Assembly (NCBI GenBank): GCA_015146655.1
Contig: VKHL01000123.1
Span: forward strand, 23,590-87,589
Length of the DNA: 64,000 nucleotides
From: Ochromonas danica
Taxonomy: Eukaryota; Sar; Chrysophyceae; Chromulinales; Chromulinaceae
Direction: 5' to 3'
A program made the position numbers and the translations under genes. Positions 3,701-64,000 of the stretch are shown piece after piece. How positions within the stretch are numbered: the first letter of the stretch is position 1; the number at the start of each line of letters is the position of its first letter. The notes below the pieces were generated by a model. The model saw nothing but the letters and a program-made list of their open reading frames with translations, had not been told where the DNA came from and did not search any database.

Positions 3701-6700
3701 TGGTCAGCCAGGCGACTACGCTCTTCCTCCATCTCATGCAACTGGCCCTGTAGCTGCTGCAGACTCTGTTGCGCCTCCTCCAACTGACCTTGCTGCTGAC
3801 TGAGTGTGAAGGTCAAGGATGTCTTTTCTTCCTCTGCAGCGGACAGTTGGCTCTGAGCGGATTCATTTCTGTCCTGAAGCGTTTGGACCTCCAACTGCAT
3901 TGCTTCGATGGCTTTGTTCATCTCTTGCACGCTATCCTCGGCCATGCGCAACGATGCTTCAAGAGAACGACAAGACTCTTCTCGCTCCTCCACTGTTCTC
4001 TCAAGCTGCATCTTGTTCTCCTCAAGAGCTAGCATCTGCTCCTGAAGACTCAACTCGCGCTCAGAGAAGCTTGCCTTGAGATCGTCAGACCCTTGTTGGA
4101 GCTGAGACAACTGCTCTTGCAAGCTCTGCTCGCGCTCCTCAGCACCGCTCAACTGGCTCTGCAACATATTCACCTGCTCAGACAACTCAGACGCGGTCTT
4201 CTCCAGCTGCAATTTGCCTTCCTCCAACACCAGAAGCTGTTCCTGGAGACTCAACTCGCGCTCTGCTGCTTCCTCCACTTGCTGCTGCAACTGAACCAAC
4301 TCGTCGCGAGCAGCTAACTTCTCTGCTTGCACCATCTCCAGTCCTTGCTCGGCCATGCGCGAAGACTCCTGGAGGGCGAGAACCTGTGCTTGCAGTTCTT
4401 GCATGCCAGCGTCGCCACTTTGCTGAAGCATCTGCACTTGGTCAGCCAGGCGACTACGCTCTTCCTCCATCTCATGCAACTGGCCCTGTAGCTGCTGCAG
4501 ACTCTGTTGCGCCTCCTCCAACTGACCTTGCTGCTGACTGAGTGTGAAGGTCAAGGATGTCTTTTCTTCCTCTGCAGCGGACAGTTGGCTCTGAGCGGAT
4601 TCATTTCTGTCCTGAAGCGTTTGGACCTCCAACTGCATTGCTTCGATGGCTTTGTTCATCTCTTGCACGCTATCCTCGGCCATGCGCAACGATGCTTCAA
4701 GAGAACGACAAGACTCTTCTCGCTCCTCCACTGTTCTCTCAAGCTGCATCTTGTTCTCCTCAAGAGCTAGCATCTGCTCCTGAAGACTCAACTCGCGCTC
4801 AGAGAAGCTTGCCTTGAGATCGTCAGACCCTTGTTGGAGCTGAGACAACTGCTCTTGCAAGCTCTGCTCGCGCTCCTCAGCACCGCTCAACTGGCTCTGC
4901 AACATATTCACCTGCTCAGACAACTCAGACGCGGTCTTCTCCAGCTGCAATTTGCCTTCCTCCAACACCAGAAGCTGTTCCTGGAGACTCAACTCGCGCT
5001 CTGCTGCTTCCTCCACTTGCTGCTGCAACTGAACCAACTCGTCGCGAGCAGCTAACTTCTCTGCTTGCACCATCTCCAGTCCTTGCTCGGCCATGCGCGA
5101 AGACTCCTGGAGGGCGAGAACCTGTGCTTGCAGTTCTTGCATGCCAGCGTCGCCACTTTGCTGAAGCATCTGCACTTGGTCAGCCAGGCGACTACGCTCT
5201 TCCTCCATCTCATGCAACTGGCCCTGTAGCTGCTGCAGACTCTGTTGCGCCTCCTCCAACTGACCTTGCTGCTGACTGAGTGTGAAGGTCAAGGATGTCT
5301 TTTCTTCCTCTGCAGCGGACAGTTGGCTCTGAGCGGATTCATTTCTGTCCTGAAGCGTTTGGACCTCCAACTGCATTGCTTCGATGGCTTTGTTCATCTC
5401 TTGCACGCTATCCTCGGCCATGCGCAACGATGCTTCAAGAGAACGACAAGACTCTTCTCGCTCCTCCACTGTTCTCTCAAGCTGCATCTTGTTCTCCTCA
5501 AGAGCTAGCATCTGCTCCTGAAGACTCAACTCGCGCTCAGAGAAGCTTGCCTTGAGATCGTCAGACCCTTGTTGGAGCTGAGACAACTGCTCTTGCAAGC
5601 TCTGCTCGCGCTCCTCAGCACCGCTCAACTGGCTCTGCAACATATTCACCTGCTCAGACAACTCAGACGCGGTCTTCTCCAGCTGCAATTTGCCTTCCTC
5701 CAACACCAGAAGCTGTTCCTGGAGACTCAACTCGCGCTCTGCTGCTTCCTCCACTTGCTGCTGCAACTGAACCAACTCGTCGCGAGCAGCTAACTTCTCT
5801 GCTTGCACCATCTCCAGTCCTTGCTCGGCCATGCGCGAAGACTCCTGGAGGGCGAGAACCTGTGCTTGCAGTTCTTGCATGCCAGCGTCGCCACTTTGCT
5901 GAAGCATCTGCACTTGGTCAGCCAGGCGACTACGCTCTTCCTCCATCTCATGCAACTGGCCCTGTAGCTGCTGCAGACTCTGTTGCGCCTCCTCCAACTG
6001 ACCTTGCTGCTGACTGAGTGTGAAGGTCAAGGATGTCTTTTCTTCCTCTACAGCAGATAATTGCATCTTGAGGCTTCTCACTTTCTCGTTCAGCTTCTCG
6101 GCGCAGCCTGCAAGCTCCTCGCCAGTGCGCTGGGAATCTTCCAGCTTCTCGGACAACAATTTCTCGCGTTCCTGTGCATTCTCCAGCAAGCCTTTGCTCT
6201 CGGAAAGCGCAACTTCAAGAGATGTCAAGCGGTCTTGCTGCTCCAGAGAGAGTCTAGAGAGTTCGTGGAGCTTGTCTTCACCGCTAACTCTCTCCAGCTC
6301 AACCTGCTCGCGCAACTCGTTCACCAAGCTTTGTGCCTCCAGATAAGCCTGTTTCGCTTGTTCTAACTCTTGCACAAGATCATTCTCTTTGCCTTGCCAA
6401 GCTTCATGGGCGAGATCTTGTTGAGTGACGACAGAGCGAGTTTGAAGAATCTCCTGCTGCAGGGCTTGCAAATGTGTTGTGAGCAGAGACACCTTTTGAG
6501 TCATAACATGCAAGTCATCTTCCGCCTTGTTACGCGCTACCTGAGAAGCCTGCAATGCCGCGTCAAGAATCGACTTGTTGTGGACATAAGAGGCCTTGAC
6601 ATCGGTCAACTCATTCTCCAGCTCGTTGGCCTTCTCCTTGTTGGCGACCATTTCGCTTTCTGCGTGAGTCAGTTGATCGTTTAGCCCGGTCATCTTCACT

Positions 6701-8628
6701 TCAAATTCCTCCATTTGCTGCTCCATCTTAGATCGTAAAGAGGAGATAATTTCATCCTTCTCTAGCAGACTCATCTGTGCGGCGGTGAGGTTCTCCTCCA
6801 TAGCGCCCATCTGCAGGACTAACTCAGTAAGCTGCGCCGCTTCCTGAGGCTCATTAGAAGCCTTGGCCTCCAACAGTTCATCCTTGAGCTTTTGTACCGT
6901 GGTCTGCAAGTCATTCACTTCCTCGCACAGTCGGTCTCTCTCTCCCTCCAGAGCAGATTTCTCCGCCATGAGGTCGAACTCGCGGTCCAGCATAACTGTC
7001 GTGCCCGATGATTCCAACTCTTCTTTAAGACTCTCGATTTCTTTGCGAGCTTGCGCCAGCTCGGAGGAAATGTTTTCAATCAGTTGGTTCTTGCGATCCA
7101 TTTCTTCCTGAAACATTGTCCGGCTCTCATTGGACGGCGGGATGTTCTCCTGATCCTCACTATACATAGAACTTGCTGAGGAACGCTTGCGCTTAGGTCG
7201 AGGAATGTCCAACTCTTCAGGAACTGTTTCAGCGTCAGAGTCGGAGGAGGTGGAGGAAGTGGAGGAGTTGAGCTCGCTGATGACAATTCGCTGCACCTCC
7301 ATTTGCTCCTTCAGTTGGGACACTTGAGCTTCAAGGTCTGCCTTTTCAGACTGCAACCTAGCTACCTCTTCTGGACTGAGGGAGGAGGCTTGCAAATAGG
7401 CTTCCTTCAATACTTCCAGCTCTTTCTTCAAGCGGCGGATCTGCGAAGACTCGTCGAGCACTTCGTTCACCTTGGCATGAGTCACCACAAGCTTTGCTCG
7501 AGAAGCAAAGGCCAAAGTGCTGCGTGTTTCTTCAAGATAGTTCTGTGCGGCAGTAATACAACAGACGATTGCCATTTTGGCATTGCCGCAGAGCGAGGGC
7601 TGCAACAAGCGAGTGAGCTTGCTGTCGCGGAAATTGACATGAGCTCCCGGCTGAGAGAGGGAGTGAATAACGCGGCTCAAAGACAACAAGGACTGATTGA
7701 TTTTGCCGCCTTCTTTCGCGCGCTGGCCCATGGCTCCTGTATGGCGAACAGACTCGGAGCCAGCGAGGTCGACCAAGTTTAGTGCCGATACGAGGACAGC
7801 GCCATCCGCCTCGACACCGGGACGAGCGCTCTCTCGGCTCTCCACCACCAATCTATGCAAGAGAGTCAAGTAACATGGCGGTTGTGCAGGGTGGGGACAG
7901 ATGTGAAGCGTACCTGAAGATGGTGTGGGAGCGACTGCTCGTATCGTTCATCGCCGTCGCCTCCACGACGCGGCGTGCAATACCTTTCTTCAATAATTTA
8001 AGAATCGAGTCAAAGTCAGTGATGACGAACTCGACTGCTTCGCAATAGACGCCCTTCCTTGGGTCCTCCCGAATAGATACAGTCGCATCGGGATTCTCAG
8101 AGAGAAGGTCGCGGATGTTCTCGTTGTAGATCTCCACGAAGGAGGCTCTCAAGAGGAAGTCTCGATTGGGGTGGTTGGCGATGTAGGCGAAGATGTCCTC
8201 GGCTGCCTGGTAGACCACGCCTTTCTCCTCTCCGCCGCCCAACATGGTGTGAGTCTTGCCGGAGCTCGTCTGGCCATCTAACCACAAGACATTCAACTTT
8301 GTTACAAGAGAGATTCTTCTAGGAAAGTGCTGATAGGCGGGTGCTTACAGGCAAAGACGGTTCCGTTGATGCCAGCCATGACTCCCTGCACGATCTCCTT
8401 GCCGATGTAGGAGTAGACGTCGGCATTGTGCGCAGACTCGTCAAAGACTTTGTCGAAGTAGGAGGTCAACCCTTCTAGGGGCTGTCCGTCCTTGATCTGG
8501 GACACAGCGTTGTACTGGGTGAGGCAGCGGAAGATCTTCTCTTGGCCACCGCTCGCCTCGCGTTCATTCAAGGGACGCATGCGGATGGCCACCTTGATTC
8601 CTTCCGTATTCTTGTTACTTCCTTCCAT
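748..8628 (-). CDS. Kinesin-7 / CENP-E-like plus-end motor with giant coiled-coil tail
   Basis: Three exons (8628-8349, 8277-7914, 7852-748) with introns of 71 and 61 nt give a 2582-residue protein. The N-terminal motor has the P-loop GQTSSGKTHT (about 95-104), switch I NDTSSRSHT (about 204-212) and switch II DLAGSES (about 243-249). Both introns fall inside the motor. The N-terminal motor followed by about 2000 residues of Glu/Gln/Leu-rich heptad coiled coil fits the kinesin-7/CENP-E class, which acts at kinetochores or in mitotic transport; the subfamily is inferred from architecture and motor wording. A Ser/Ala/Pro-rich non-coiled C-terminus with basic patches follows. Residues about 816-1721 are built from a 246-residue repeat (separate entry). 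Convergent with ETFB. Confidence 0.92.
3334..6048 (-). repeat. 738-bp tandem repeats inside the kinesin coiled coil
   Basis: About 3.7 copies of a 738-bp (246-codon) unit in direct tandem. The same text recurs at 3355, 4093, 4831 and 5569, almost without substitutions in the stretches compared. The period is a multiple of three, so the frame is kept, and it is close to 35 heptads (245 residues). Edges show a few substitutions, for example at the ends near 3345 and 6049, which suggests they are the oldest boundaries. DNA-level identity means recent expansion or continuing homogenisation rather than ancient coiled-coil repetition. Confidence 0.95.
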
Positions 8629-37653: not shown

Positions 37654-38631
37654 TTATAATAGCACCCTGGTAAGTACAGGAACGACAACGCTCAATAAAC
37701 CGCTCCAAAAGCCTCCTCCACGACGAGCTCTCTCGATCGCATCACTGAGTTTCTTTGCGTGCCTCTCCTCCATCTCCACAATCTGTCTTGTAGTTTCGTC
37801 TTGTTTCTTCTGAAATTCCTCCTGCGCTACTCGAAGACGTTCGTAAGCCACTTCTCTCTCTTTCTCCAGCTTGACAACTTCTTCCTTAGCTTCTTGGATG
37901 CGTATATGGATTTCATATTCCGAAGGAAATGCCTTCGTTACATCCACTGGATGGTTGGTACTGGCCCAACGACGAATCTCTTGCACCGTGCGCTCATTGC
38001 GTGCCACAGTAGAAGAGAGCCTGTCTGGGTAATCGGACCAAAGTTCCTCGGGATGAGAGTCCACCTGCCAGAACGGCATCGTAGACACATCCACCCCTGT
38101 CACATTGGTGATGATAGGGCTCAGCTCTTCAGTCATGTACTGCTGTGCATCCGCAGCAGATACGCTGTAGGAGCGGGTGAAGACTACTCCCGTGACAGAC
38201 AAGATCTCTGGTCCGAAGGAATCCACCATGAGCTTCAGCGCACTCTGACAAGCTGAGTCGAAGCGTGGAGACTGCTCATTGATGACCAGAAGGAAGGCAT
38301 GCACAAGTTTGTCTTCCTTCATATTGTTCACAATCAACGCGATGTTCTTCTCGTCCTGGAAGGTGCCTGCAGAATCCACTAGTCCAGGATGATCCGTGAT
38401 CTTTAAGTCTTGAATCAGGACAGACTGGGGTTGGTGTGTATGAGAGTTCACTGATGAGCTCTCAGAGAATGGAGCTTTGTTGGGGTCTCCACCAAGTAGG
38501 CGATAGAGCAGGTTGGCGAAGGTTGATTTGCCATCACCTGTTCTCCCCACCAGCGACACGTTAATGGTGGCCTGGTATAGCTTGAAGAAGCAAGTGAGGA
38601 ATAGGAGGAAGTGGAGAGTATTCATCAACAT
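37654..38631 (-). CDS. AIG1/GIMAP-type GTPase with N-terminal signal anchor (copy 1)
   Basis: 325 residues, single exon. N-terminal hydrophobic segment (TLHFLLFLTCFF, about 5-16) followed by Lys17, then directly the first strand and P-loop of the G domain: NVSLVGRTGDGKST (G1, 29-37 for GRTGDGKST), a Thr-rich G2 region, G3 D80-HPG, and VVFTRSY in the G4 place, the AIG1 pattern rather than NKxD. A charged coiled coil (about 237-305) and a terminal hydrophobic helix (about 308-325) follow. AIG1/GIMAP GTPases oligomerise on membranes. Lys after the hydrophobic segment and none before it favours N-out/C-cytosol orientation; this is inference. Divergent with the small Cys-rich gene. Confidence 0.88.
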   Translation of the reverse strand: MLMNTLHFLLFLTCFFKLYQATINVSLVGRTGDGKSTFANLLYRLLGGDPNKAPFSESSSVNSHTHQPQSVLIQDLKITDHPGLVDSAGTFQDEKNIALIVNNMKEDKLVHAFLLVINEQSPRFDSACQSALKLMVDSFGPEILSVTGVVFTRSYSVSAADAQQYMTEELSPIITNVTGVDVSTMPFWQVDSHPEELWSDYPDRLSSTVARNERTVQEIRRWASTNHPVDVTKAFPSEYEIHIRIQEAKEEVVKLEKEREVAYERLRVAQEEFQKKQDETTRQIVEMEERHAKKLSDAIERARRGGGFWSGLLSVVVPVLTRVLL

Positions 38632-38935
38632 TATATGGTACTAGTATGATATGTATAGTGTAGATATGATAGAATATGATTGTGACTGGCTGATGTCTTC
38701 TTCTTCTTCTCTCCACAGTGTGTGTCCGACAGTGTTGCTGTTGTTGCTGTTCTCTCTCAAGAGTGGAGCTGTGTGAGAGAGAAGTCCCGGTTCCGGGGCC
38801 AACTGCTGCTCTGATTGAGAGAGAAAAGCAACAAGAGGTGGTGATTGAGAGAGAAGACATCCGACTGCCCTGACTTCACAATCATATTCTATCTATTGCC
38901 ACAATACATCATACCATATAATATCATACCACATA
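38632..38935. promoter_or_regulatory. 304-bp bidirectional promoter spacer, orientation A
   Basis: Separates the GTPase and small Cys-rich start codons. Contains GA/CT repeats (tctctctcaa), a tttctatcata-type AT motif near each end, and an internal inverted pair (atagaatatgattgtga at 38669-38685, complement at 38876-38892). Its reverse complement is the spacer of copy 2 (42059-42362), with the same length and no mismatch seen. Confidence 0.9.
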
Positions 38936-39244
38936 ATGTTGATGAATACTCTCCACTTCCTCCTATTCATCGCTTGCTTCTTCAAGCTATACCAGGCCAC
39001 CATTGCAGACACTGTGGATCCCTCCAAGACGCAGCAAGAATGTCGTGAAAGAGAAGTGAAAAGGGTCGCTCAGCATTCTAAGCGCTATGGTGGCCATTGC
39101 TACGGATTGTTTGGCCCGCGTAAGTACCGAGATTACTGGACCGATGTGACCTATCTCAGAGAATGCAGATCTGCTGACAAATCGGCAAGCAGTGAATGCT
39201 TCACCAAACAAGTGGGGAGATACAAGGAAAACGTTTGCCCCTGA
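38936..39244 (+). CDS. Small Cys-rich secreted-type protein
   Basis: 102 residues. Residues 1-23 are almost the same signal segment as the neighbouring GTPase (LHFLLFIACFFKLYQATI), with two differences. The mature part of about 79 residues is basic with five Cys (in QEC, GHC, REC, SEC and VCP contexts) and reads like a compact disulfide-bonded domain. It matches the C-terminal 90 residues of the chimeric gene at 42363, lacking an 11-residue-longer loop (with NIT sequon) found there. No known family recognised. Whether it is secreted depends on the orientation of the shared leader. Confidence 0.75.
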   Translation: MLMNTLHFLLFIACFFKLYQATIADTVDPSKTQQECREREVKRVAQHSKRYGGHCYGLFGPRKYRDYWTDVTYLRECRSADKSASSECFTKQVGRYKENVCP

Positions 39245-39484
39245 TCATCTAGTTTAAAGAAATATTGTTTTGCCGCACTGAATGAGAAAAAGAATCTGAC
39301 GATTGAAATAACTTTGAGAATCTAAAGCGCTACAAAAATTACGTACGGAAATAAGTTGATTGTAATGACAAGATTAACAACAGAGATGTGTTCGATGGTT
39401 CTTCATACTTACCGTCCACTAAACGAGTCCGAGGCTCTAGTAGATGACATCTAGACTATGCAGTATCTCTGTGGACTAGAGCTG

Positions 39485-39830
39485 CTACATGACCACACAA
39501 GCTCCCGTGGCAAAGCTGCGCTACCTCGGAGGGAGGAGGGAGGAGGGAGGAGAGGGTTGGTTACTTGGTGGCGCCGTTGGCTTGGGCCAGCATCTGGCCG
39601 TCACTCGACTGCATGCTACCGCTGTCATCACAGATGAAGAAGCGCAGGGGAGTCCGCGAGACATTCTGGATGAAGGCGTCCTGCAGGCTGTCTGGCCAGC
39701 GCCTGGCAGAGAGAAACTCTTTTGCTCCGCCCTCATTCTGCAGAGTTGGCAAGGCGGCTGCGGAAGAAGGAGTTGGGGCCGAAGGGGAACCTCCAACCGA
39801 CACCACTTGTGCGATAGGAATTTTCTCCAT
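39485..39830 (-). pseudogene. Truncated vWA/CaaX gene, copy 1
   Basis: Exon 1 (39830-39565) and the start of intron 1 are intact, but a deletion joins intron 1 to the last 37 nt of exon 4 (junction at 39521/39522). Relative to 43644-44924, 935 bp (43681-44615) are missing, including exons 2 and 3 and most of exon 4. The remaining reading frame stops after 89 residues at 39561 and keeps only the first vWA strand with the DxSxS motif. Confidence 0.88.
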
Positions 39831-40036
39831 GTTAAATCAATCTGCAGAAAGATCCACAGCTGCACTTTGTTTCACTCAACCTTGTCAACCTTAACTTAAG
39901 ACAATGCATGCATTAACTTAATACGAGAAGAGGAAAGAGGAAAGAGAAACGGTCGAGTAGTTTCTACGCAAGACAATAATAGTTAACTCTCTCTGTCAGT
40001 GTGGCTGTTTCTGCATTTGGTCTGTTTCAAATAGTC

Positions 40037-40363
40037 ATGGGCAATGAAATTGGTCTACCACCAAGCCAGCTGGGCATAACTTCCTTGGGAGTAACGACCC
40101 CCAATATCGAGCTGAAGGAGATGGAGAAGCTGCTGCAGGCGATGAGGAAGAGCGAGAAAGACCAGGTGGACAAGAATGACTTCCAGGCAGCGCTCAAGCA
40201 GGTCGACAAATTCCAACCACCAGATGTGGAGCTCTTTAACCAGCTCTTCATCCTGTTCGACGAGCAGGGCCACGAAGTGGTTGACAGGGCCACAATGAGA
40301 CTGGCCAGCAGGTTCGGACTCCCTTCTACTTCGAGTATCCTTCCCTCGTGGTCATGTTGTTGA
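40037..40363 (+). pseudogene. EF-hand-like gene truncated by the duplication junction
   Basis: Starts like the intact gene at 45131 (MGNEIG..., 83 residues to EVVD) and then crosses the duplication junction at 40285-40292 into glycosidase 3' sequence in a different frame, ending after 25 unrelated residues. It still has the promoter and the N-terminal myristoylation motif, so a 108-residue product might be made, but the second half of the domain is lost. Confidence 0.85.
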
Positions 40364-40689
40364 GGGAAGTAGTCTATGGGATCCATGTGAACTGGACTGA
40401 CTTCAGCATCGATCCTCTCCTCGCTCACTATCATTTGCGTACGTCAGGAATGGAAGTAGTCTATGGTGTGGAGGAGGTGTCTGTCTCCCTCTTCTCTCCG
40501 CATGGGTACGACCCTGTGAAGGAAGAGCTGATGAGTAGGAACTGCTTGATCCACAGCCTCCTGCCGCAGTTACCGTATGATGTGACTAATGGGGAGCATA
40601 AGCTAGTAGTAGCAACAGATGAGAGGGGCACACTGGCTTTTCCTTGCTTCCTTTCCTCCTCAATCCTGGCCAAGCTTCATAAGGAGTAG
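40292..40689 (+). pseudogene. 3' fragment of the glycosidase-like gene (copy 2)
   Basis: Exact-looking copy of 36865-37262, the last 132 codons and stop of the glycosidase-like gene, without a 5' part or promoter. It can only be transcribed by read-through from the truncated EF-hand gene, and not in its own frame. Confidence 0.92.
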
Positions 40690-41080
40690 TTCTGAGCATG
40701 TACTCCTTGTATTATTGCTTGGCTCAATACTAACCCCACTACAAGTTATTCTTCCACTACAGCTCGTATTTCTTTGTTAGAACTAGACTAGAGCTATGGT
40801 GGTTTGGTCATTGTGATTGTTTGTCCATGTTCACATGGTGAAACTACTGTAGATCCACTCTACTCCATCTTTAATAATTTCCTTCTTTCTGCTTCATGCA
40901 CAGTAATGAAATCAAATCAAACATCGTTAGAAACCTCTACCCAGTTTGAAACAAAGAGATTGCAGTCAAAGATCAGAGATGATTAAATTGTTAATTTTCA
41001 TTCACCCTCCATCTGAAGTTAGTTATCGATAAGAAGCAATCGAATAGAAGGAGAAGGTGGAGGTGTTATTTGCATGCATG
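40690..41080. other. Convergent 3' region, copy 2
   Basis: 391 bases identical to 37263-37653 as far as read; no gene. Confidence 0.5.
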
Positions 41081-42058
41081 TTATAATAGCACCCTGGTAA
41101 GTACAGGAACGACAACGCTCAATAAACCGCTCCAAAAGCCTCCTCCACGACGAGCTCTCTCGATCGCATCACTGAGTTTCTTTGCGTGCCTCTCCTCCAT
41201 CTCCACAATCTGTCTTGTAGTTTCGTCTTGTTTCTTCTGAAATTCCTCCTGCGCTACTCGAAGACGTTCGTAAGCCACTTCTCTCTCTTTCTCCAGCTTG
41301 ACAACTTCTTCCTTAGCTTCTTGGATGCGTATATGGATTTCATATTCCGAAGGAAATGCCTTCGTTACATCCACTGGATGGTTGGTACTGGCCCAACGAC
41401 GAATCTCTTGCACCGTGCGCTCATTGCGTGCCACAGTAGAAGAGAGCCTGTCTGGGTAATCGGACCAAAGTTCCTCGGGATGAGAGTCCACCTGCCAGAA
41501 CGGCATCGTAGACACATCCACCCCTGTCACATTGGTGATGATAGGGCTCAGCTCTTCAGTCATGTACTGCTGTGCATCCGCAGCAGATACGCTGTAGGAG
41601 CGGGTGAAGACTACTCCCGTGACAGACAAGATCTCTGGTCCGAAGGAATCCACCATGAGCTTCAGCGCACTCTGACAAGCTGAGTCGAAGCGTGGAGACT
41701 GCTCATTGATGACCAGAAGGAAGGCATGCACAAGTTTGTCTTCCTTCATATTGTTCACAATCAACGCGATGTTCTTCTCGTCCTGGAAGGTGCCTGCAGA
41801 ATCCACTAGTCCAGGATGATCCGTGATCTTTAAGTCTTGAATCAGGACAGACTGGGGTTGGTGTGTATGAGAGTTCACTGATGAGCTCTCAGAGAATGGA
41901 GCTTTGTTGGGGTCTCCACCAAGTAGGCGATAGAGCAGGTTGGCGAAGGTTGATTTGCCATCACCTGTTCTCCCCACCAGCGACACGTTAATGGTGGCCT
42001 GGTATAGCTTGAAGAAGCAAGTGAGGAATAGGAGGAAGTGGAGAGTATTCATCAACAT
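41081..42058 (-). CDS. AIG1/GIMAP-type GTPase with N-terminal signal anchor (copy 2)
   Basis: Protein identical to the copy at 37654-38631 (325 residues): signal anchor, G1 GRTGDGKST, G3 DHPG, AIG1-type VVFTRSY, coiled coil and terminal hydrophobic helix. The only difference is upstream: because the spacer is reversed, this copy is driven by the half of the spacer that in copy 1 faces the small Cys-rich gene. Its first 702 coding bases form the minus arm of the 704-bp inverted repeat. Confidence 0.88.
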   Translation of the reverse strand: MLMNTLHFLLFLTCFFKLYQATINVSLVGRTGDGKSTFANLLYRLLGGDPNKAPFSESSSVNSHTHQPQSVLIQDLKITDHPGLVDSAGTFQDEKNIALIVNNMKEDKLVHAFLLVINEQSPRFDSACQSALKLMVDSFGPEILSVTGVVFTRSYSVSAADAQQYMTEELSPIITNVTGVDVSTMPFWQVDSHPEELWSDYPDRLSSTVARNERTVQEIRRWASTNHPVDVTKAFPSEYEIHIRIQEAKEEVVKLEKEREVAYERLRVAQEEFQKKQDETTRQIVEMEERHAKKLSDAIERARRGGGFWSGLLSVVVPVLTRVLL

Positions 42059-43064
42059 TATGTGGTATGATATTATATGGTATGATGTATTGTGGCAATA
42101 GATAGAATATGATTGTGAAGTCAGGGCAGTCGGATGTCTTCTCTCTCAATCACCACCTCTTGTTGCTTTTCTCTCTCAATCAGAGCAGCAGTTGGCCCCG
42201 GAACCGGGACTTCTCTCTCACACAGCTCCACTCTTGAGAGAGAACAGCAACAACAGCAACACTGTCGGACACACACTGTGGAGAGAAGAAGAAGAAGACA
42301 TCAGCCAGTCACAATCATATTCTATCATATCTACACTATACATATCATACTAGTACCATATAATGTTGATGAATACTCTCCACTTCCTCCTATTCCTCAC
42401 TTGCTTCTTCAAGCTATACCAGGCCACCATTAACGTGTCGCTGGTGGGGAGAACAGGTGATGGCAAATCAACCTTCGCCAACCTGCTCTATCGCCTACTT
42501 GGTGGAGACCCCAACAAAGCTCCATTCTCTGAGAGCTCATCAGTGAACTCTCATACACACCAACCCCAGTCTGTCCTGATTCAAGACTTAAAGATCACGG
42601 ATCATCCTGGACTAGTGGATTCTGCAGGCACCTTCCAGGACGAGAAGAACATCGCGTTGATTGTGAACAATATGAAGGAAGACAAACTTGTGCATGCCTT
42701 CCTTCTGGTCATCAATGAGCAGTCTCCACGCTTCGACTCAGCTTGTCAGAGTGCGCTGAAGCTCATGGTGGATTCCTTCGGACCAGAGATCTTGTCTGTC
42801 ACGGGAGTAGTCTTCACCCGCTCCTACAGCGTATCTGCTGCGGATGCACAGCAGTACATGACTGAAGAGCTGAGCCCTATCATCACCAATGTGACAGGGG
42901 TGGATGTGTCTACGATGCCGTTCTGGCAGGTGGACTCTCATCCCGAGGAACTTTGGTCCGATTACCCAGACAGGCTCTCTTCTACTGTGGCACGCAATGA
43001 GCGCACAGTGCAAGAGATTCGTCGTTGGGCCAGTACCAACCATCCAGTGGATGTAACGAAGGCA
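41357..43064. repeat. 704-bp inverted repeat around the spacer
   Basis: Arms 41357-42060 and 42361-43064 are reverse complements with no mismatch found in the stretches compared, separated by 300 bp. The arms end in coding sequence at ...GATGTAACGAAGGCA, after which one gene reads FPSEY and the other APERY. Confidence 0.93.
42059..42362. promoter_or_regulatory. 304-bp bidirectional promoter spacer, orientation B (inverted)
   Basis: Reverse complement of 38632-38935, base for base in the lines compared. Lies between two identical GTPase 5' ends. The internal GA-rich tracts and AT motifs are the same but point the other way. Confidence 0.92.
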
Positions 43065-43403
43065 GCTCCAGAGCGTTACATCGATAATGTATTGTTGGAC
43101 CAATTGGGAGAGAAGAAGGAAAAGACTATTGCAGATACTGTGGATCCCTCCAAGACTCGGCAAGAATGTCGTGATGTTGAATCGAAAAGGGTCGCTCAGC
43201 ATTCTAAGCGCTATGGTGGCCATTGCTTCGTATTGTTTGGCCCGCGTAAGTACCGAGATTACTGGACCGATGTGACCTATTGCAGAGAATGCAGATCTCA
43301 CAACTACAACCAAGCTGGTGAATTGTTGAACATCACTGACTGGATAAGCAGTGGATGCTTCACCAAACAAGTGGGGAGATACAAGGAAAACGTTTGCCCC
43401 TGA
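42363..43403 (+). CDS. Chimeric AIG1-type GTPase fused to Cys-rich domain
   Basis: 346 residues. Residues 1-234 equal the neighbouring GTPase (signal anchor and whole G domain). A unique linker of about 21 residues (APERYIDNVLLDQLGEKKEK) follows, and then the Cys-rich domain of the small protein at 38936, in a slightly longer form with two extra Cys-adjacent features (YCRECRS; ELLNITDWISSG). It lacks the coiled coil and terminal hydrophobic helix of the standard GTPase. If both halves are used, a membrane-anchored GTPase bears a disulfide-type domain, which is topologically awkward, since one half prefers cytosol and the other the secretory lumen. Confidence 0.82.
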   Translation: MLMNTLHFLLFLTCFFKLYQATINVSLVGRTGDGKSTFANLLYRLLGGDPNKAPFSESSSVNSHTHQPQSVLIQDLKITDHPGLVDSAGTFQDEKNIALIVNNMKEDKLVHAFLLVINEQSPRFDSACQSALKLMVDSFGPEILSVTGVVFTRSYSVSAADAQQYMTEELSPIITNVTGVDVSTMPFWQVDSHPEELWSDYPDRLSSTVARNERTVQEIRRWASTNHPVDVTKAAPERYIDNVLLDQLGEKKEKTIADTVDPSKTRQECRDVESKRVAQHSKRYGGHCFVLFGPRKYRDYWTDVTYCRECRSHNYNQAGELLNITDWISSGCFTKQVGRYKENVCP

Positions 43404-43643: not shown

Positions 43644-44924
43644 CTACATGACCACACAAGCTCCCGTGGCAAAGCTGCGCTTGAGAGTGGCCACGTCCAC
43701 CCAGTCGCGTACTTTGCGATCCCCTGGGCTGAAGACTTTGAAGCCGCTGCGATTCAGCACCTCAATTCCATTAACAAAACCCTTCCAATCAGCTTCTGGA
43801 TGTGGCAAATTGTCCACCTTGCTGCCATAGCTAACAGTCCATCACAGCCACTTGTCAAGTTCCCACAAGTAGAGCAGGTTACAGGTGAAAATGTGCTTAC
43901 ATGAACCTACAGATCTTCTTGAGATGTTCTTTGGATAGACGTGCTTCATCCAACAGATCGATTTCTTTCAAGGAAACTCCGAACTCTCGCATGCGATGCA
44001 GAGGCTCGGCATAGGAAAGCCAGGGATTGAACTTGCGGATCTCCATCGCCTCACTGCAGAGATCATCTAAAACGTCCATGTTGAGCTCTAACTCCGCGTC
44101 AATGTTGTTCCAATACTGCACTATCTTGTCTTCATCAGTGCAGAGTCGCAGAATGACCCAGCAGGGCAAGTTCTTGAGAGGACGCAAAGCGTCGGCTACG
44201 TTGCCGTCACTTGATTCTCCATCCGTGGCGATGACGACACAGGCCTTTTGCCCTGCTGCTCGAAGTGAGTGCTCCACTTCTTGGATTTCGCGCGTGACCT
44301 CTCGGATGTGCTGGCAGAGAGGAGTGCCTCCAGAGGGACCCTGCGCGAAGGCCTGCATGAGCAACTCCACTGACTGGGTTTCGTTTGGCTGAAATCCAAC
44401 GCGCACTGGAAGCACAGCATTGAGCAATCTGAACTCAGAGGGCGCCAAGGCAGCCTATCGTGTGGTGGTCTTAGAGGGTGTGGCAGAGGGAAGAGAGAGA
44501 AGGCTGACCTGAGCGAAGCCCACGTGGAACTTCAACGCTTCTGTTAGCTCGGCCCATCTCGAGCAACTAACCAACCTAAACACGAAGAGAGAGCGGGTTA
44601 TTCCACCACTGCCACTACCTCGGAGGGAGGAGGGAGGAGGGAGGAGAGGGTTGGTTACTTGGTGGCGCCGTTGGCTTGGGCCAGCATCTGGCCGTCACTC
44701 GACTGCATGCTACCGCTGTCATCACAGATGAAGAAGCGCAGGGGAGTCCGCGAGACATTCTGGATGAAGGCGTCCTGCAGGCTGTCTGGCCAGCGCCTGG
44801 CAGAGAGAAACTCTTTTGCTCCGCCCTCATTCTGCAGAGTTGGCAAGGCGGCTGCGGAAGAAGGAGTTGGGGCCGAAGGGGAACCTCCAACCGACACCAC
44901 TTGTGCGATAGGAATTTTCTCCAT
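43644..44924 (-). CDS. vWA-domain protein with CaaX box (paralogue 2, intact)
   Basis: Exons 44924-44659, 44575-44509, 44454-43901 and 43830-43644 give 357 residues. MIDAS DxSxS at D68-S70-S72 (CDDSGSM), GGTPLCQHI, KACVVIATDGESSDG, LPCWVILRLCTD and FNPWLSYAEPLHRMREFG align with the 32823 paralogue throughout. The last exon was found by homology: after acceptor ..ctgttag it reads YGSKVDNLPHPEADWKGF and ends G-A-C-V-V-M, a CaaX box. Introns 1 and 2 sit at the same sites in both paralogues (exon 2 is 67 nt in both). Paralogue 1's third intron is absent here, and this gene's third intron is absent there. Divergent with the EF-hand-like gene over 206 bp. Confidence 0.85.
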
Positions 44925-58251: not shown

Positions 58252-58873
58252 TGCCAATGGCTTTTTTCAAGCTCTTTATCACAGAGTGCGAATTCTTCGG
58301 GAGGCTTCCCAACAAATTTATCTGGCAGTGCCTCGTCCCAGCAGGCATCACCCACACAAACAGCGAGCCAGATAGCGCGTTCTTCACCAACACTAAGTGT
58401 TTTTCCCCGAAGTCGCATTGTTAGATAGTTATATTTAAAGTATTTAAAGTATGATCGTCACTCGAAGCCCACCATACCTAATTTTCTCTGACTCAAAGAG
58501 TTCGTCCCCTTTTGGACATGTCTGAGTGCAGTAGCTTTGTCTTTTGCGACGAGAAACAGAAAATGATGTGGAACTCGCAATCGCAAACCTCCCGATAGTT
58601 CTCAATGGCATCTACGACAACTTTCCAGAGGTTTGCGATGGCGAGTTCCGCGTCATTCTTTTGATTCTCGTCGCTAACATCAAAGCTACTGTACTCAGAT
58701 ATGTGCAACACACAAAGGAAACATTGCAACACTAAGTCTGAGTGAGTATACTGAATTACAGTTACACATAATCATTCCATTCAACTGCATAACATTCGAA
58801 GATATTACATTCGACGACTTATAGACCGATATTGCCATATATGGACCGATATAAAGGATATTGTTACTACAAA
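58252..58873. other. Region with uncertain kinesin 5' exon and a palindrome
   Basis: Bases 58252-58418 carry an alternative minus frame that could be the true kinesin N-terminus. The imperfect palindrome lies at 58517-58704, and from about 58713 the sequence is homologous to the 3' flank of the downstream GH172 copy (60977 onward). Confidence 0.5.
58517..58704. repeat. Imperfect 190-bp palindrome
   Basis: Left arm (tctgagtgcagtagctttg... gcgacgagaa... gaactcgcaatcgcaaacctc) and the reverse complement of the right arm (atctgagtacagtagctttg... gcgacgagaat... gaactcgccatcgcaaacctc) match over about 75 bp with roughly 15 differences. About 40 bp lie between the arms, centred near 58610. Both strands encode a short D/E-E-L-A-I-A-N-L peptide. 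Confidence 0.85.
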
Positions 58874-60684
58874 CTACTCGCAAGTATCACCCATGGCATT
58901 TTTTCCAGAAGCTTGCTGGAGAACATTATCCCCGAAATACACAATATTCGGCAGTCGAAAATTGGGGTGAGCATGGTGATGCTGCATATGCAGTCCAAAG
59001 AGGAAAGCTCGACTATTGGTGTTATCTGTGTTGGAAAACTGAACCAAAAACTCATTCTGTCCCACAACCATCGCACTACTATTCACACGGAAAGTATGAT
59101 AGCCACCGAGCGCTTCAAGTCCCGAATACGCCTGTTTACCATTGATATACAACACCAAAGGGTCGTCATGAGACACAAAGAGATTCAAGGTACTCAACTG
59201 GTCAGCTTGCTTGACAATATAATGACCTCTGGCCCAGACAAAGCAATCTTTGGGATAGCCTTCATTGGTTGCAAATCTGAAGAAATACTCTCCAACGCTG
59301 AGAAAACCAAATGTTGGAGCCAGTCGACGATAAGAAGTGTCAACGTTTTGAATATTACCAATCGCTGCAGCAAACCCACTGGAAGGAATGGTATACGATA
59401 TATTCCACTCCGTCACGAAGCCTGTAGGAGGCGGGACTGCGAAATCTTCACTGACAGCTTCGCCTAAGCGCTGCGCCAATGGAGGAAGTCGCTTAGTGTT
59501 TGCCAGAGCTGGTCCATGTTGATACCAATACATCACAGACTGTGTGAAATCCTGCAACGCACCATATTCAAAGCTGAAGTCGGATGCGAAGGGCAACTGA
59601 AACTCTTCGGTGAAAAAACGGTAAGCCGAGAAGTGGTTTTGATTGTCTCCGTACATGAAACCCCAGTCAGGGAAGTTATGGAACTTCTCGAACCAGCAGG
59701 AAGTTCCGAAGAAATCTTCACCTCCTGTGCCCTTCAAAACACGAGCATTTGTGGAAGGATCCAACAAAATCAGTTCAGCACCATTATGAAACCACTGATC
59801 GTGTCTATCAAGAATAGTGAGACCGAAAGTGACGCCTAGTAGATAGCCACTGCCACGAGCATGACCGACATGATAGGATCGTTTGAACTCATGTGGAAAA
59901 CCATGGGGCCTCAACTGGCGACGGTCTTCCATTCGATAGCTTGCGTGAAAACGAAGTGGCTCTGGGAAAGGACAACGCGGATCATACATGTCATAGCTGA
60001 TCTGAGACCACACACGCATCTTGATATCTCTGGGATCCTCGTTGATCAAGGTGAACTTGATTCTCTTCGCAAAAGGAAGCGGCGCCACCAAAGTGAATGC
60101 ACCGTTCTCCGAGATTTTGAACAAGTTGTTGTCTGCGCCATAACCAGACAAGGTGTTGCCCCACGAATCATCGTGATCATGATAGATCCCGAAGAAGGCA
60201 CCCAGCGGAGCTTCCACGGCAGGAGTAGGCGAGTCATCATAGTAGATGCGCAACACCATCATCATGGCATCCTTCGTGCGAACACAGCGCTTAGGACGAC
60301 TTGGTGATGCACCCATGCCCGTTACCAACCAAAACAGCCTGTTTACAAACAAACAGAGAGGTAACCATCGTGAGTAAGGACATAAACTAGGATGAGGACT
60401 GAGAAGCGAGAGAAGACGTACTTTACGCATCCCGGCCCTTCTATATCAGCCAACACTGTCTCCTGGGTTCTGGAAATGCATGATCGAAAGGCGATCTTAT
60501 TGGGGACGCGAAGTTTAGGCAAGGTCAGCATGCCATGGAAGGAGGCCACAGTCTCTGTGCTGGGGCAGGTGGTGGAGTTCCTCAAGCTGTTGTGGTCCAG
60601 ATTGGAATAGACAGCAAGTGGAAGAAGGGCGAGAAGGAGGCCAAATAATGCCAATCTGCCACCGAAAGTTACGGAGAACATCAT
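58874..60684 (-). CDS. GH172-family (DUF2961) glycoside hydrolase, copy 1
   Basis: Exons 60684-60422 and 60338-58874 (83-nt intron) give 575 residues. The start ATG-ATG precedes a signal peptide (LALFGLLLALLPLAVYS), so the protein is likely secreted or vacuolar. Conserved DUF2961 blocks: IEGPGCVK with VLRIYYDDSPTPAVEAPLGAFFG (joined by the splice), ISENGAFTLVAPLPFAKRIKFTL, TGGEDFFGTSCWF and FSAYRFF, which belong to the double-jelly-roll catalytic region. Known GH172 enzymes act on fructofuranosyl or arabinofuranosyl linkages; the substrate here is unknown. A C-terminal beta-sandwich domain with NVDTSYRRL and LFVSHDDPLVLYINGK resembles PA14/galactose-binding modules. Confidence 0.88.
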
Positions 60685-61154
60685 GTCAGGCAATGAGATA
60701 ATTTTGGATCAGATGATTGGATTTGGTTTTGTTCAGTTACTGTCGCTTCACAACGCGCTACCCGCGGAAACCCGAAACCCAAAACTGCCAAACTGCCAAT
60801 TTCCTCAACTGAACCTTAACTTTACATATTCGTTGTTGTACAGTTTGCACAAGGAAGAGGAAGAAACTGAGGCGAGCCTTGGGTTTCTTCGCACTGCTCT
60901 GACTCTTCTCATTCTTCACACTTATTGAACACGTTCAAACCCTGACGCCTATCAGCGGATCAGCCATCAGCAACCACCCAAAGGAAACATTGCAACACTA
61001 AGTCTGTGTGAGTATACTGAATTAGAGTTAATCATGATCATTTCATTCAACTGCATAAAATATGGCGACAAATGTGAGCGCAATATAATCGAAGACCTAG
61101 AGACCGATATTTCCATATAAGGATCGACATGACGAAACACCTATGTAGTACAAA
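60685..61154. other. Spacer between GH172 copies
   Basis: 470 bases: 5' flank of copy 1, which diverges from copy 2 beyond about 60731, and the 3' flank of copy 2, which resembles 58713-58873 at lower identity than the coding parts. No gene. Confidence 0.5.
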
Positions 61155-62965
61155 CTACTCGCAAGTATCACCCATAGGATTTATTCTAGAAGCTTGCTGG
61201 AGAACATTATCCCCGAAATACACAATATTCGGCAGTCGAAAATTGGGGTGAGCATGGTGATGCTGCATATGCAGTCCAAAGAGGAAAGCTCGACTATTGG
61301 TGTTATCTGTGTTGGAAAACTGAACCAAAAACTCATTCTGTCCCACAACCATCGCACTACTATTCACACGGAAAGTATGATAGCCACCGAGCGCTTCAAG
61401 TCCCGAATACGCCTGTTTACCATTGATATACAACACCAAAGGGTCGTCATGAGACACAAAGAGATTCAAGGTACTCAACTGGTCAGCTTGCTTGACAATA
61501 TAATGACCTCTGGCCCAGACAAAGCAATCTTTGGGATAGCCTTCATTGGTTGCAAATCTGAAGAAATACTCTCCAACGCTGAGAAAACCAAATGTTGGAG
61601 CCAGTCGACGATAAGAAGTGTCAACGTTTTGAATATTACCAATCGCTGCAGCAAACCCACTGGAAGGAATGGTATACGATATATTCCACTCCGTCACGAA
61701 GCCTGTAGGAGGCGGGACTGCGAAATCTTCACTGACAGCTTCGCCTAAGCGCTGCGCCAATGGAGGAAGTCGCTTAGTGTTTGCCAGAGCTGGTCCATGT
61801 TGATACCAATACATCACAGACTGTGTGAAATCCTGCAACGCACCATATTCAAAGCTGAAGTCGGATGCGAAGGGCAACTGAAACTCTTCGGTGAAAAAAC
61901 GGTAAGCCGAGAAGTGGTTTTGATTGTCTCCGTACATGAAACCCCAGTCAGGGAAGTTATGGAACTTCTCGAACCAGCAGGAAGTTCCGAAGAAATCTTC
62001 ACCTCCTGTGCCCTTCAAAACACGAGCATTTGTGGAAGGATCCAACAAAATCAGTTCAGCACCATTATGAAACCACTGATCGTGTCTATCAAGAATAGTG
62101 AGACCGAAAGTGACGCCTAGTAGATAGCCACTGCCACGAGCATGACCGACATGATAGGATCGTTTGAACTCATGTGGAAAACCATGGGGCCTCAACTGGC
62201 GACGGTCTTCCATTCGATAGCTTGCGTGAAAACGAAGTGGCTCTGGGAAAGGACAACGCGGATCATACATGTCATAGCTGATCTGAGACCACACACGCAT
62301 CTTGATATCTCTGGGATCCTCGTTGATCAAGGTGAACTTGATTCTCTTCGCAAAAGGAAGCGGCGCCACCAAAGTGAATGCACCGTTCTCCGAGATTTTG
62401 AACAAGTTGTTGTCTGCGCCATAACCAGACAAGGTGTTGCCCCACGAATCATCGTGATCATGATAGATCCCGAAGAAGGCACCCAGCGGAGCTTCCACGG
62501 CAGGAGTAGGCGAGTCATCATAGTAGATGCGCAACACCATCATCATGGCATCCTTCGTGCGAACACAGCGCTTAGGACGACTTGGTGATGCACCCATGCC
62601 CGTTACCAACCAAAACAGCCTGTTTACAAACAAACAGAGAGGTAACCATCGTGAGTAAGGACATAAACTAGGATGAGGACTGAGAAGCGAGAGAAGACGT
62701 ACTTTACGCATCCCGGCCCTTCTATATCAGCCAACACTGTCTCCTGGGTTCTGGAAATGCATGATCGAAAGGCGATCTTATTGGGGACGCGAAGTTTAGG
62801 CAAGGTCAGCATGCCATGGAAGGAGGCCACAGTCTCTGTGCTGGGGCAGGTGGTGGAGTTCCTCAAGCTGTTGTGGTCCAGATTGGAATAGACAGCAAGT
62901 GGAAGAAGGGCGAGAAGGAGGCCAAATAATGCCAATCTGCCACCGAAAGTTACGGAGAACATCAT
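61155..62965 (-). CDS. GH172-family (DUF2961) glycoside hydrolase, copy 2
   Basis: Exons 62965-62703 and 62619-61155 mirror copy 1 at an offset of 2281 bp, including an apparently identical intron. 575 residues. The only protein differences noticed are near the C-terminus (QASRINPMG against QASGKNAMG). In this copy the frame stays open upstream of the ATG to 63133, but the ATG-ATG before the signal peptide, shared with copy 1, is the sensible start. Domain content and likely role are as for copy 1. Confidence 0.88.
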
Positions 62966-64000
62966 GTCAGGCAATGAGATAATTTTGGACCAGATGATTG
63001 GATTTGGTTCTGTTGAGCAATGGATCGGGGATGTGGGAGATCTGAGATCGCGGCTGTCGATGGACTGTTGGCTACTATTACGTTTTATTGTTCCGCTTGG
63101 GCTGCCTCGAGTTTTCTTGCTGTAAAAACTCAAACATTGTGACTTTCCCCAATCCGCTCTTCCTCTTAAAATACCAACAAAAAGTCTTTCACCTTAAAGA
63201 GAAGACCCCTAACATAATATATCATTAGAATGGGCAGATCAAGAGGAATATGATGGAATTGGTCTTTTCCTCAGAGGACTGTTAAAAGCGACAGTTCAGC
63301 ATATAAAATAACGGCCATTTTGGTGCGGTGTCTTCGGAATTTTGTCTAAAACGGGATTTTGTCCACCTGTGGCCAACGGTGGATGACAATCAAATCCTGC
63401 AAAGAAGAACATTCTCATATTAAAACCTTTCTCTCACTCTGTTAAAATGTCCTCTGCTGCTGTTGAACCTTCTACTTGACCTTTCTACTTTCGGCAAGAT
63501 CGTTGTAATGGCATGTTGGCCTTCCCTTGGCGGTGAATCTGTCCATTGCTGGATTTCATGTGGCGGCGGTGGACATCAGTGAGAAAGTAGTGGAAGAAGT
63601 GATGGCTGGCGTCTTTACGTTTGTGGAGAATGGAGACGATCGCTATCTTCGCGCAGCATTGGCGAATCGAACGGTGGCGATGATGCCAAAGAGGTGGTGA
63701 TCATCGCGGGATTTTGGACGAGCAATTCCCTTGGATCAAGCAGCAGATCGAGTTTGGCAACCTTTAGAGTTAACAATTGGTTGATTGGATTAGAAAGTAG
63801 TTATTGATCGCCTGTGATGATTATGATCACTGAGCATACTGTGGATGGGAGTGCTAACTGTTCCATCTGTATTGATTTGCAATTATATTATGCTGTTACA
63901 GCCTCTGAACCATCTATTATTCTATATCTGCAGTTATTCTTTGACTTGGTTATCAAGTACTGTAATAAGTATAATGTTAAGTGAAACTTGGTGGCGGGTG
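62966..64000. other. Terminal region with a decayed gene fragment
   Basis: About 1 kb, AT-rich. Apart from the dehydrogenase-like fragment at 63515-63700 I see no gene. Confidence 0.5.
63515..63700 (+). pseudogene. Nucleotide-sugar dehydrogenase-like N-terminal fragment
   Basis: One frame reads VGLPLAVNLSIAGFHVAAVDISEKVVEEVMAG and on to AMMPKRW then stop. This matches the Rossmann beta-alpha-beta of UDP-glucose/UDP-ManNAc-type dehydrogenases (GLPLAxxLAxAGFxVxGxDI). The expected preceding strand (KIVVMA) is present but out of frame by one base, and the following DAKEVVIIAG-like text is in a third frame, so the gene looks frameshifted and truncated. The fragment is short; an undetected splice is possible. 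Confidence 0.45.

What the first reader, a model, noticed from the sequence alone, without database searches (positions are those of the whole stretch)
38632..42362. A 304-bp bidirectional promoter is present in opposite orientations in two copies of the same gene pair
Spacer 38632-38935 and spacer 42059-42362 are the same length and are reverse complements of each other in every line compared, while the minus-strand GTPase genes on their left are direct copies. Only the promoter block has flipped. Each spacer is bounded by inverted repeats that include the signal-peptide codons of both flanking genes, the geometry needed for inversion by recombination. The flip would swap which half-promoter drives the GTPase and which drives its partner, a possible eukaryotic analogue of an invertible promoter switch. 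I cannot tell from one sequence whether it is reversible.
Basis: partly seen in the sequence, partly recalled or inferred. Interest (0 to 1): 0.87.

Follow-up and report, generated by a model that had tools for sequence, protein, structure and literature searches.

The report
Flipped promoter inside recombining gene palindrome
In a golden-alga-like protist, a 304-base stretch between two back-to-back genes appears in opposite directions in two neighbouring copies, most likely because the nearly identical mirror-image gene halves around it recombine, a known kind of event rather than a proven genetic switch.

Summary
The core observation holds: spacer 38632-38935 equals the reverse complement of 42059-42362 at 304 of 304 bases. 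But "only the promoter block has flipped" is wrong. The inverted match runs 37930-39004 against 43064-41990, because the copy-2 partner is a different gene: a third GTPase (42363-43403, 346 aa). Its first 702 nt match both minus-strand GTPases except for one silent base; its tail resembles that of the short copy-1 partner. Copy 2 is therefore a palindrome: 702-bp arms around a 304-bp spacer. Eight proteins from public contigs share the GTPase-plus-tail build, so this gene is genuine and the short partner probably derived. Its GTPase half was probably overwritten by its neighbour through conversion; the tract stops at nt 702. Arm recombination with the spacer flipped as a by-product explains the anatomy best; nematode and yeast precedents exist. 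A regulatory switch is not supported: the promoter halves are diverged mirror images with a shared motif. Copy-1 orientation can be told by 101-base words; copy-2 orientation cannot below about 650 bases. Assembly error, polymorphism and active flipping remain open until long reads are checked.

The parts
37654..38631 (-). G1: AIG1-family GTPase, 325 aa; signal peptide and coiled-coil/hydrophobic tail by eye
   Evidence: ORF; Pfam AIG1 2.1e-13; identical to G2 over 978 nt
38632..38935 (.). Spacer 1, divergent intergenic region (putative bidirectional promoter), 304 bp
   Evidence: 304/304 reverse complement of 42059-42362; two places found in own genome
38563..38685 (.). Left arm of copy-1 imperfect inverted repeat (69 nt of GTPase start + 54 bp of spacer)
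   Evidence: 87% to reverse complement of 38876-39004
38876..39004 (.). Right arm of copy-1 imperfect inverted repeat (60 bp of spacer + 69 nt of partner start)
38936..39244 (+). PA: copy-1 partner, 102 aa, GTPase-type signal peptide joined straight to the Cys-rich tail (tail from 39002); GTPase domain absent, probably lost
   Evidence: one stand-alone relative found, P0024, with one residue changed
40286..40291 (.). Junction of the tandem duplication: 6 bp between a truncated copy of the EF-hand-like gene and the 3' end of the gene upstream of G1
41081..42058 (-). G2: second copy of the GTPase
41357..42058 (-). Left 702-bp palindrome arm (5' part of G2)
   Evidence: one mismatch to the right arm (nt 645)
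42059..42362 (.). Spacer 2: spacer 1 in opposite orientation
42363..43064 (+). Right 702-bp palindrome arm (converted 5' part of CH)
42363..43403 (+). CH: 346-aa signal peptide (by eye) + AIG1 GTPase + Cys-rich tail, divergent partner of G2
   Evidence: Pfam AIG1 4e-13; relatives with the same architecture
43065..43127 (+). 21 codons just after the conversion boundary, read as the unconverted remnant of CH's own GTPase C-terminal end
   Evidence: APERYIDNV... against FPSEYEIHI... in G
43128..43403 (+). Cys-rich tail of CH; counterpart in PA at 39002-39244
43682..44614 (.). 933-bp stretch present in copy 2 and missing in copy 1

Best explanation
The locus is a divergent (head-to-head) pair of AIG1-family GTPase paralogues that forms an inverted repeat, present as two tandem units. 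In unit 2 the 5' 702 nt of the plus-strand gene were overwritten by the minus-strand gene through inverted-repeat gene conversion, giving near-perfect arms around the shared 304-bp intergenic region. Recombination between those inverted arms, either as a crossover or as one template-switch/conversion tract running from the GTPase through the spacer, inverted the spacer. In unit 1 the partner lost its GTPase domain, leaving only short diverged arms. Shown: the repeat anatomy, the exact inversion in the assembly, the sharp boundary at nt 702, the recurrence of the GTPase-plus-tail architecture. Inferred: the recombination mechanism, the order of events, that the spacer is the promoter. A consequence, not a demonstrated function, is that which half-promoter faces which gene is exchanged.
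For: Arms 41357-42058 / 42363-43064 differ at 1 of 702 nt, and identity stops abruptly at nt 702. After it CH keeps a diverged GTPase end (APERYIDNV against FPSEYEIHI) and then a tail that matches tail-bearing relatives P0006-P0008 at 33-41% and gave no BLAST hit to G's tail at E 10. In the GTPase-domain tree CH is identical to G and next to own-genome paralogue C155a, far from those tail-bearing relatives: domain and tail have different histories, as conversion predicts. Other AIG1 paralogues of the genome match at 71-81% in DNA, and another inverted AIG1 pair on contig 122 has arms at 88%, so 99.9% is not the family norm. Copy-1 PA keeps two signal-peptide differences (nt 34, 37) that CH lacks, as expected if only CH's arm was overwritten. 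Tail HMM: 8 proteins from public contigs hold a GTPase part + tail, E 2e-12 or better. Precedents: C. briggsae tandem copies of a divergent pair with identical 5' 297 nt and diverged C-termini (PMC1803023, Results and Discussion); yeast arm homogenisation together with spacer inversion (PMC8604942, passages); Saccharomyces flip/flop region re-inverted by homogenised repeats (PMC9731477, abstract and one section).
Against: No reads or second strain with the other orientation was seen. The PA and CH tails differ at 23 aligned sites plus a 33-bp gap within 39010-39195, while the duplicated DNA around them differs at 0 or 1 site per stretch. A simple recent tandem duplication followed by inversion does not explain that. 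P0006 and other long branches in the tree are of unsure place (warning). Orientation in copy 2 rests on the assembly alone.
Confidence: 0.7

Rival explanations
1. Assembly orientation artefact: the real spacer 2 has the copy-1 orientation, or both orientations occur among the chromosome copies, and the assembler picked one at the palindrome.
For: Reversing spacer 2 in place changes 0 canonical k-mers at k = 31, 101, 151, 500, 600 and 640; 8 differ at 650 and 208 at 700. Sequences shorter than the arms therefore cannot orient it. Several chrysophytes are polyploid (PMC7954800, passages and one section).
Against: 337 contigs for 31 Mb suggests long reads, which would span the 1.7-kb palindrome (inference; the sequencing method is unknown). 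Copy-1 orientation is determinable from short words (256 differing 101-mers). The palindrome itself is unlikely to be an artefact: CH's architecture recurs in 8 other proteins.
Confidence: 0.18
2. A functional, reversible promoter switch: inversion in copy 2 alternates which half-promoter drives G2 and which drives CH, with selection for the alternation.
For: Geometry is right: 702-bp near-identical arms, short spacer, divergent genes with different tails. Eukaryotic inversion switches exist (H. polymorpha mating type, PMC4238957, abstract).
Against: The halves are partly mirror images and share the gene-proximal 18-bp motif. No recombinase was sought and no expression data exist here. Copy 1, with arms of about 125 bp at 87%, is a poor substrate.
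Confidence: 0.07
3. One inverted segmental duplication: a block holding G1's 5' half and the spacer was pasted in inverted orientation in front of a PA-like gene, newly creating CH.
For: The inverted match is collinear across spacer and GTPase half (1075 bp), so one event could carry both.
Against: CH has 21 residues that look like its own diverged GTPase end between boundary and tail, and GTPase + tail recurs in other proteins, so CH was probably a GTPase-tail gene before; the event replaced sequence rather than created the gene.
Confidence: 0.05

Closest known systems
Divergent paralogous gene pairs in inverted repeats kept alike in Caenorhabditis (F44E5.4/F44E5.5 and orthologues; PMC1803023; outline, Results and Discussion read)
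   Same: Head-to-head paralogues, short non-palindromic spacer (126 bp there), arms that run into coding sequence, 5' ends identical while C-termini diverged, tandem duplication of the whole pair in C. briggsae; gene conversion proposed as one mechanism
   Different: No inversion of the spacer between tandem copies is described in the sections read; inversion is mentioned only in general terms, for unstable palindromes
Inverted-repeat spacer inversion with arm homogenisation by template switching in yeast (PMC8604942; passages seen)
   Same: Arm homogenisation and spacer inversion, in one case (REG2) together; spacer inversions reversible over short evolutionary time
   Different: Very short: inversions seen on arms longer than 9 bp (16 bp in REG2) and changing 2-5 bp; here 702-bp arms and a 304-bp spacer
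Saccharomyces chromosome XIV flip/flop region (PMC9731477; abstract, headings and one section seen)
   Same: Homogenised inverted gene repeats cause recurrent re-inversion of what lies between
   Different: 4-kb repeats around 24 kb with 15 genes; orientation stable on laboratory timescales (section heading)
Mating-type switching by inversion in Hansenula/Ogataea polymorpha (PMC4238957; abstract and headings seen)
   Same: Eukaryotic inversion that changes gene expression
   Different: Induced by nutrient limitation; swaps the chromosomal places of two loci, one active and one repressed, about 18 kb apart; shown to be a switch

Membership tests
Inverted-repeat paralogue pair under gene conversion | Divergent paralogues with near-identical inverted arms | tested here: met
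   701 of 702 nt
Inverted-repeat paralogue pair under gene conversion | Identity confined to a tract, with older divergence outside it | tested here: met
   boundary at nt 702; tail relationships and domain tree disagree
Inverted-repeat paralogue pair under gene conversion | Structure conserved while sequence diverges between species | not testable with these tools
   no orthologous locus with flanking DNA was available (metagenome scans capped at 0; the tail-bearing relatives are protein records)
Inverted-repeat spacer inversion | Spacer present in both orientations between the same kind of arms | tested here: met
   304/304 reverse complement, (two tandem units of one assembly, not two strains; copy 1 now has only short arms)
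Invertible promoter switch | Both orientations found at one locus in one strain | not testable with these tools
   no reads; searches show that words of 640 bases or less cannot tell for copy 2
Invertible promoter switch | Dedicated recombinase or regulated inversion | not tested
   none sought
Invertible promoter switch | Flip changes expression of the flanking genes | not testable with these tools
   no expression data
AIG1/GIMAP GTPase family (PF04548) | Profile match above curated cut-off | tested here: met
   G1 50.6 bits and CH 49.6 bits against cut-off 27

The most novel reading that the evidence does not exclude
Unit 2 is a live flip-flop promoter module in a protist nucleus: arm recombination keeps inverting the shared 304-bp promoter, so a culture is a mixture of cells in which the coiled-coil-tailed and the Cys-tailed secretory GTPases have exchanged half-promoters, without a dedicated recombinase.
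Probability: 0.1. Interest if true: 0.8.

Novelty: new variant of a known kind. Interest (0 to 1): 0.42.

Why it matters
It links two known effects of inverted paralogue pairs, arm conversion and spacer inversion, at the scale of a whole shared intergenic region, with the flipped and unflipped forms side by side. It gives a compact, PCR-testable site for asking whether concerted evolution of head-to-head genes also reassigns their promoters. It also warns that the orientation of such a region cannot be read from short-read assemblies.

Tried and rejected
Viral origin: the scan of viral contigs with G1 matched 13 stretches, none of which encodes a relative. Solved-structure match by sequence with G1: none at E 0.001. 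New fusion gene or assembly chimaera for CH: thought unlikely, since 8 other proteins have GTPase + tail. PA as an independent small gene family: one protein found, P0024, 102 aa, from an Ochromonas danica-labelled EukProt set. Spacer as a dispersed element: two places found, both here. Shared promoter motif as a genome-wide element: the 18-bp motif has 4 exact places, all in these two spacers; with up to 2 mismatches 21 places against 7 for the reversed control, too few to call. Ancestral promoter orientation from the upstream DNA of C155a and a contig-122 pseudogene: local scores in the four comparisons (C155a with the G half, C155a with the partner half, pseudogene with each) were reached by 11, 0, 1 and 1 of 300 plain shuffles. 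Three of the four best matches lie in GAGA-rich stretches; the fourth (C155a with the G half) covers part of the 18-bp motif close to C155a's ATG. This gave no polarity. Naming the organism: C155a contains P0002 letter for letter, labelled Ochromonas danica, but GC and assembly size of C. danica 933-7 in PMC7954800 (45.4%, 44 Mbp) do not fit (window GC 50.6%; assembly 31.2 Mb), so I leave it at chrysophyte. Papers: PMC6738136 was seen in passages and not used further; the other papers were seen as search listings only.

It confirmed that copy 1 can be oriented by 101-base words and sharpened the copy-2 limit to about 650 bases.
Full report
Setting. The window is C123:23590-87589 of a 31.19-Mb, 337-contig genome. 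The EukProt protein P0002, labelled Ochromonas danica, lies letter for letter in own-genome locus C155a, so this is a chrysophyte or a very close relative; the strain is not known. Three further EukProt gene models (P0001, P0004, P0023) are pieced together from this very locus; they may come from the same assembly and are not independent support.

Observation. Spacer 38632-38935 is the exact reverse complement of 42059-42362: 304/304, against 116/304 in direct orientation. The GTPase genes to the left are identical over 978 nt. In copy 1 the start of the GTPase and the start of its partner, with 54-60 bp of spacer each, form an 87% inverted repeat.

The inverted match does not stop at the spacer: 37930-39004 matches 43064-41990 at 99.7% over 1075 bp. 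The plus-strand gene of copy 2, CH (42363-43403), is a GTPase as well. Its first 702 nt equal G1 and G2 except for a silent change at nt 645 (ACG/ACA). Then come 21 residues of a different GTPase end and a Cys-rich tail like that of PA, the copy-1 partner (74% identical residues). So copy 2 is a palindrome with 702-bp arms and the 304-bp spacer in the middle. PA (102 aa) is nearly the same signal peptide joined directly to the tail.

CH has the older architecture. A search with CH gave 23 proteins, one with a four-row alignment gave 58. An HMM of the tail, built from CH, P0006, P0007 and P0008 and run on all 60 proteins held, found it at E 2e-12 or better in 10 of 60. Eight of these come from public contigs without a named organism, probably metagenomes, and carry a GTPase part as well: P0006, P0007, P0008, P0025, P0026, P0028, P0029, P0034. 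Limits: P0006-P0008 trained the HMM; P0026 is a near copy of P0006 that lacks the middle of the domain; P0028 and P0029 are close to each other; P0034's tail lacks the cysteines (by eye). That leaves about three lines independent of the training set. The other two hits are P0004, a gene model of this locus, and P0024, PA's counterpart with one residue changed (V to E). The search with PA found only P0024 (candidates limited to 0.55-1.75 times its length). PA therefore most likely lost the GTPase domain. P0024 comes from a differently named EukProt set, which supports PA being real.

Conversion. The GTPase-domain tree used 18 rows: 2 of the window, 5 of the same genome and 11 of the 23 proteins. 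CH and G are identical there and sit with C155a, while the tail-bearing P0006-P0008 lie far off. The tails group the other way: CH with P0006-P0008 (33-41% identity), G with C155a (42%). Long branches make the exact place of P0006 unsure, but not the contrast of 211/211 against 85-92 of 209-210 identical residues. AIG1 paralogues elsewhere in the genome match at 71-81% in DNA, and an inverted AIG1 pair on contig 122 has arms at 88%. An abrupt fall from 99.9% to diverged sequence at nt 702 is the mark of a conversion tract from G into CH. PA's two signal-peptide differences at nt 34 and 37 are absent in CH, which agrees.

The flip. With inverted arms on either side, a crossover inverts what lies between; a conversion or template-switch tract that enters near the ATGs and runs through the spacer would flip the spacer and overwrite the arm at once. 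The data do not separate these, since the arms are identical around the spacer. Passages of PMC8604942 describe a yeast case with both effects in one event, and reversibility of spacer inversions, at the scale of a few bases. PMC1803023 (outline, Results and Discussion) describes divergent pairs of the same build, including tandem copies in C. briggsae with identical first 297 nt and diverged C-termini. PMC9731477 (abstract, headings and one section) shows recurrent re-inversion driven by homogenised repeats. The kind of process is therefore known. A promoter-sized spacer flipped between two tandem units may be a new twist: two searches for promoter inversion in eukaryotes showed no such case in their listings (20 of 53 listed, 12 of 2176 listed), which is a thin check.

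Is it a switch? The two halves of the spacer are diverged mirror images: no dinucleotide shuffle out of 1000 reached the local or the global alignment score; for the inner 184 bp, 0 of 1000 (local) and 14 of 1000 (global) did. An 18-bp motif starts 54 bp from the G-side ATG and 60 bp from the other. Gene-proximal parts match at 45 of 54 aligned bases (60 columns with gaps), distal parts at 60 of 80 (110 columns with gaps). A flip thus exchanges related halves. That weakens, but does not exclude, an effect on expression.

Can the orientation be trusted? Reversing spacer 1 in place changes 256 canonical 101-mers, so short reads fix copy 1 (0 at k = 31). Reversing spacer 2 changes none at 31, 101, 151, 500, 600 or 640 bases, 8 at 650 and 208 at 700: copy 2 can be oriented only by reads about as long as the arms or longer. 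The tandem duplication is plausible as real: its junction has 6 bp (40286-40291) between the two parental stretches, copy 1 lacks 933 bp that copy 2 has, and copy 1 holds a truncated copy of an EF-hand-like gene (the EF-hand match is below Pfam's cut-off).

Left unexplained. The tandem units differ at 0 of 1767 sites (end of the upstream gene through G), 0 of 304 (spacer, inverted), 0 of 327 (39196-39522) and 1 of 765 (right end), but the PA and CH tails differ at 23 aligned sites and by a 33-bp gap between 39010 and 39195. That patch is too diverged for the same recent duplication. Two old alleles joined by unequal exchange, followed by homogenisation, would fit; I did not test it.

Baseline. 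Inverted repeats of at least 100 bp occur in 0 of 5 sampled 10-kb pieces, in 3 of 6 window pieces covering 1-60000 (two of them this locus, the third a 201-bp hairpin), and in 2 of the 5 fetched AIG1 pieces L011-L015. Pieces of 10 kb miss wider repeats, and the sample is small.

Verdict. An exact inversion, in the assembly, of a shared intergenic region, embedded in a palindrome of GTPase genes that bears the marks of gene conversion. Ordinary recombination explains it; reversibility and function are open and cheaply testable.

Noticed in passing
39010-39195 against 43136-43354: Tails of PA and CH differ at 23 aligned sites plus a 33-bp gap, while the duplicated DNA around them is nearly identical; looks like two old alleles or a mutation cluster.
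   Followed up: partly
L011:3834-4066 and 5825-6057; 3073-3220 and 7623-7770: Nested, 100% identical inverted repeats (233 and 148 bp; the inner pair holds tRNA-Met genes) flank the single AIG1 gene C155a in the same genome.
   Followed up: partly
L013:1403-2314 and 6076-6987: A second divergent AIG1 pair in inverted orientation on contig 122, arms 88% identical, reaching about 230 bp upstream of both starts; a useful less-converted comparison.
   Followed up: partly
3329-6054: A tandem repeat with a unit of 738 bp (246 codons), 99.2-99.8% alike, inside a 2327-aa open frame.
   Followed up: no
58705-60733 and 60970-63014: Tandem duplication (97.7%) of a 518-aa DUF2961 gene, with a 201-bp imperfect hairpin at 58512-58708 just beside it (the Pfam match was tested for the left copy only).
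   Followed up: no
40037-40363: Truncated copy of the EF-hand-like gene running across the duplication junction into the 3' end of another gene; a EukProt gene model (P0004) reads through it and is then joined to the CH tail.
   Followed up: partly
P0006-P0008, P0025, P0026, P0028, P0029, P0034: A protein architecture for which I saw no name: AIG1 GTPase, often with a signal peptide (by eye), followed by a conserved C-terminal domain with Cys, Tyr and Trp; PA, essentially that domain alone, has no Pfam match at E 0.01.
   Followed up: partly
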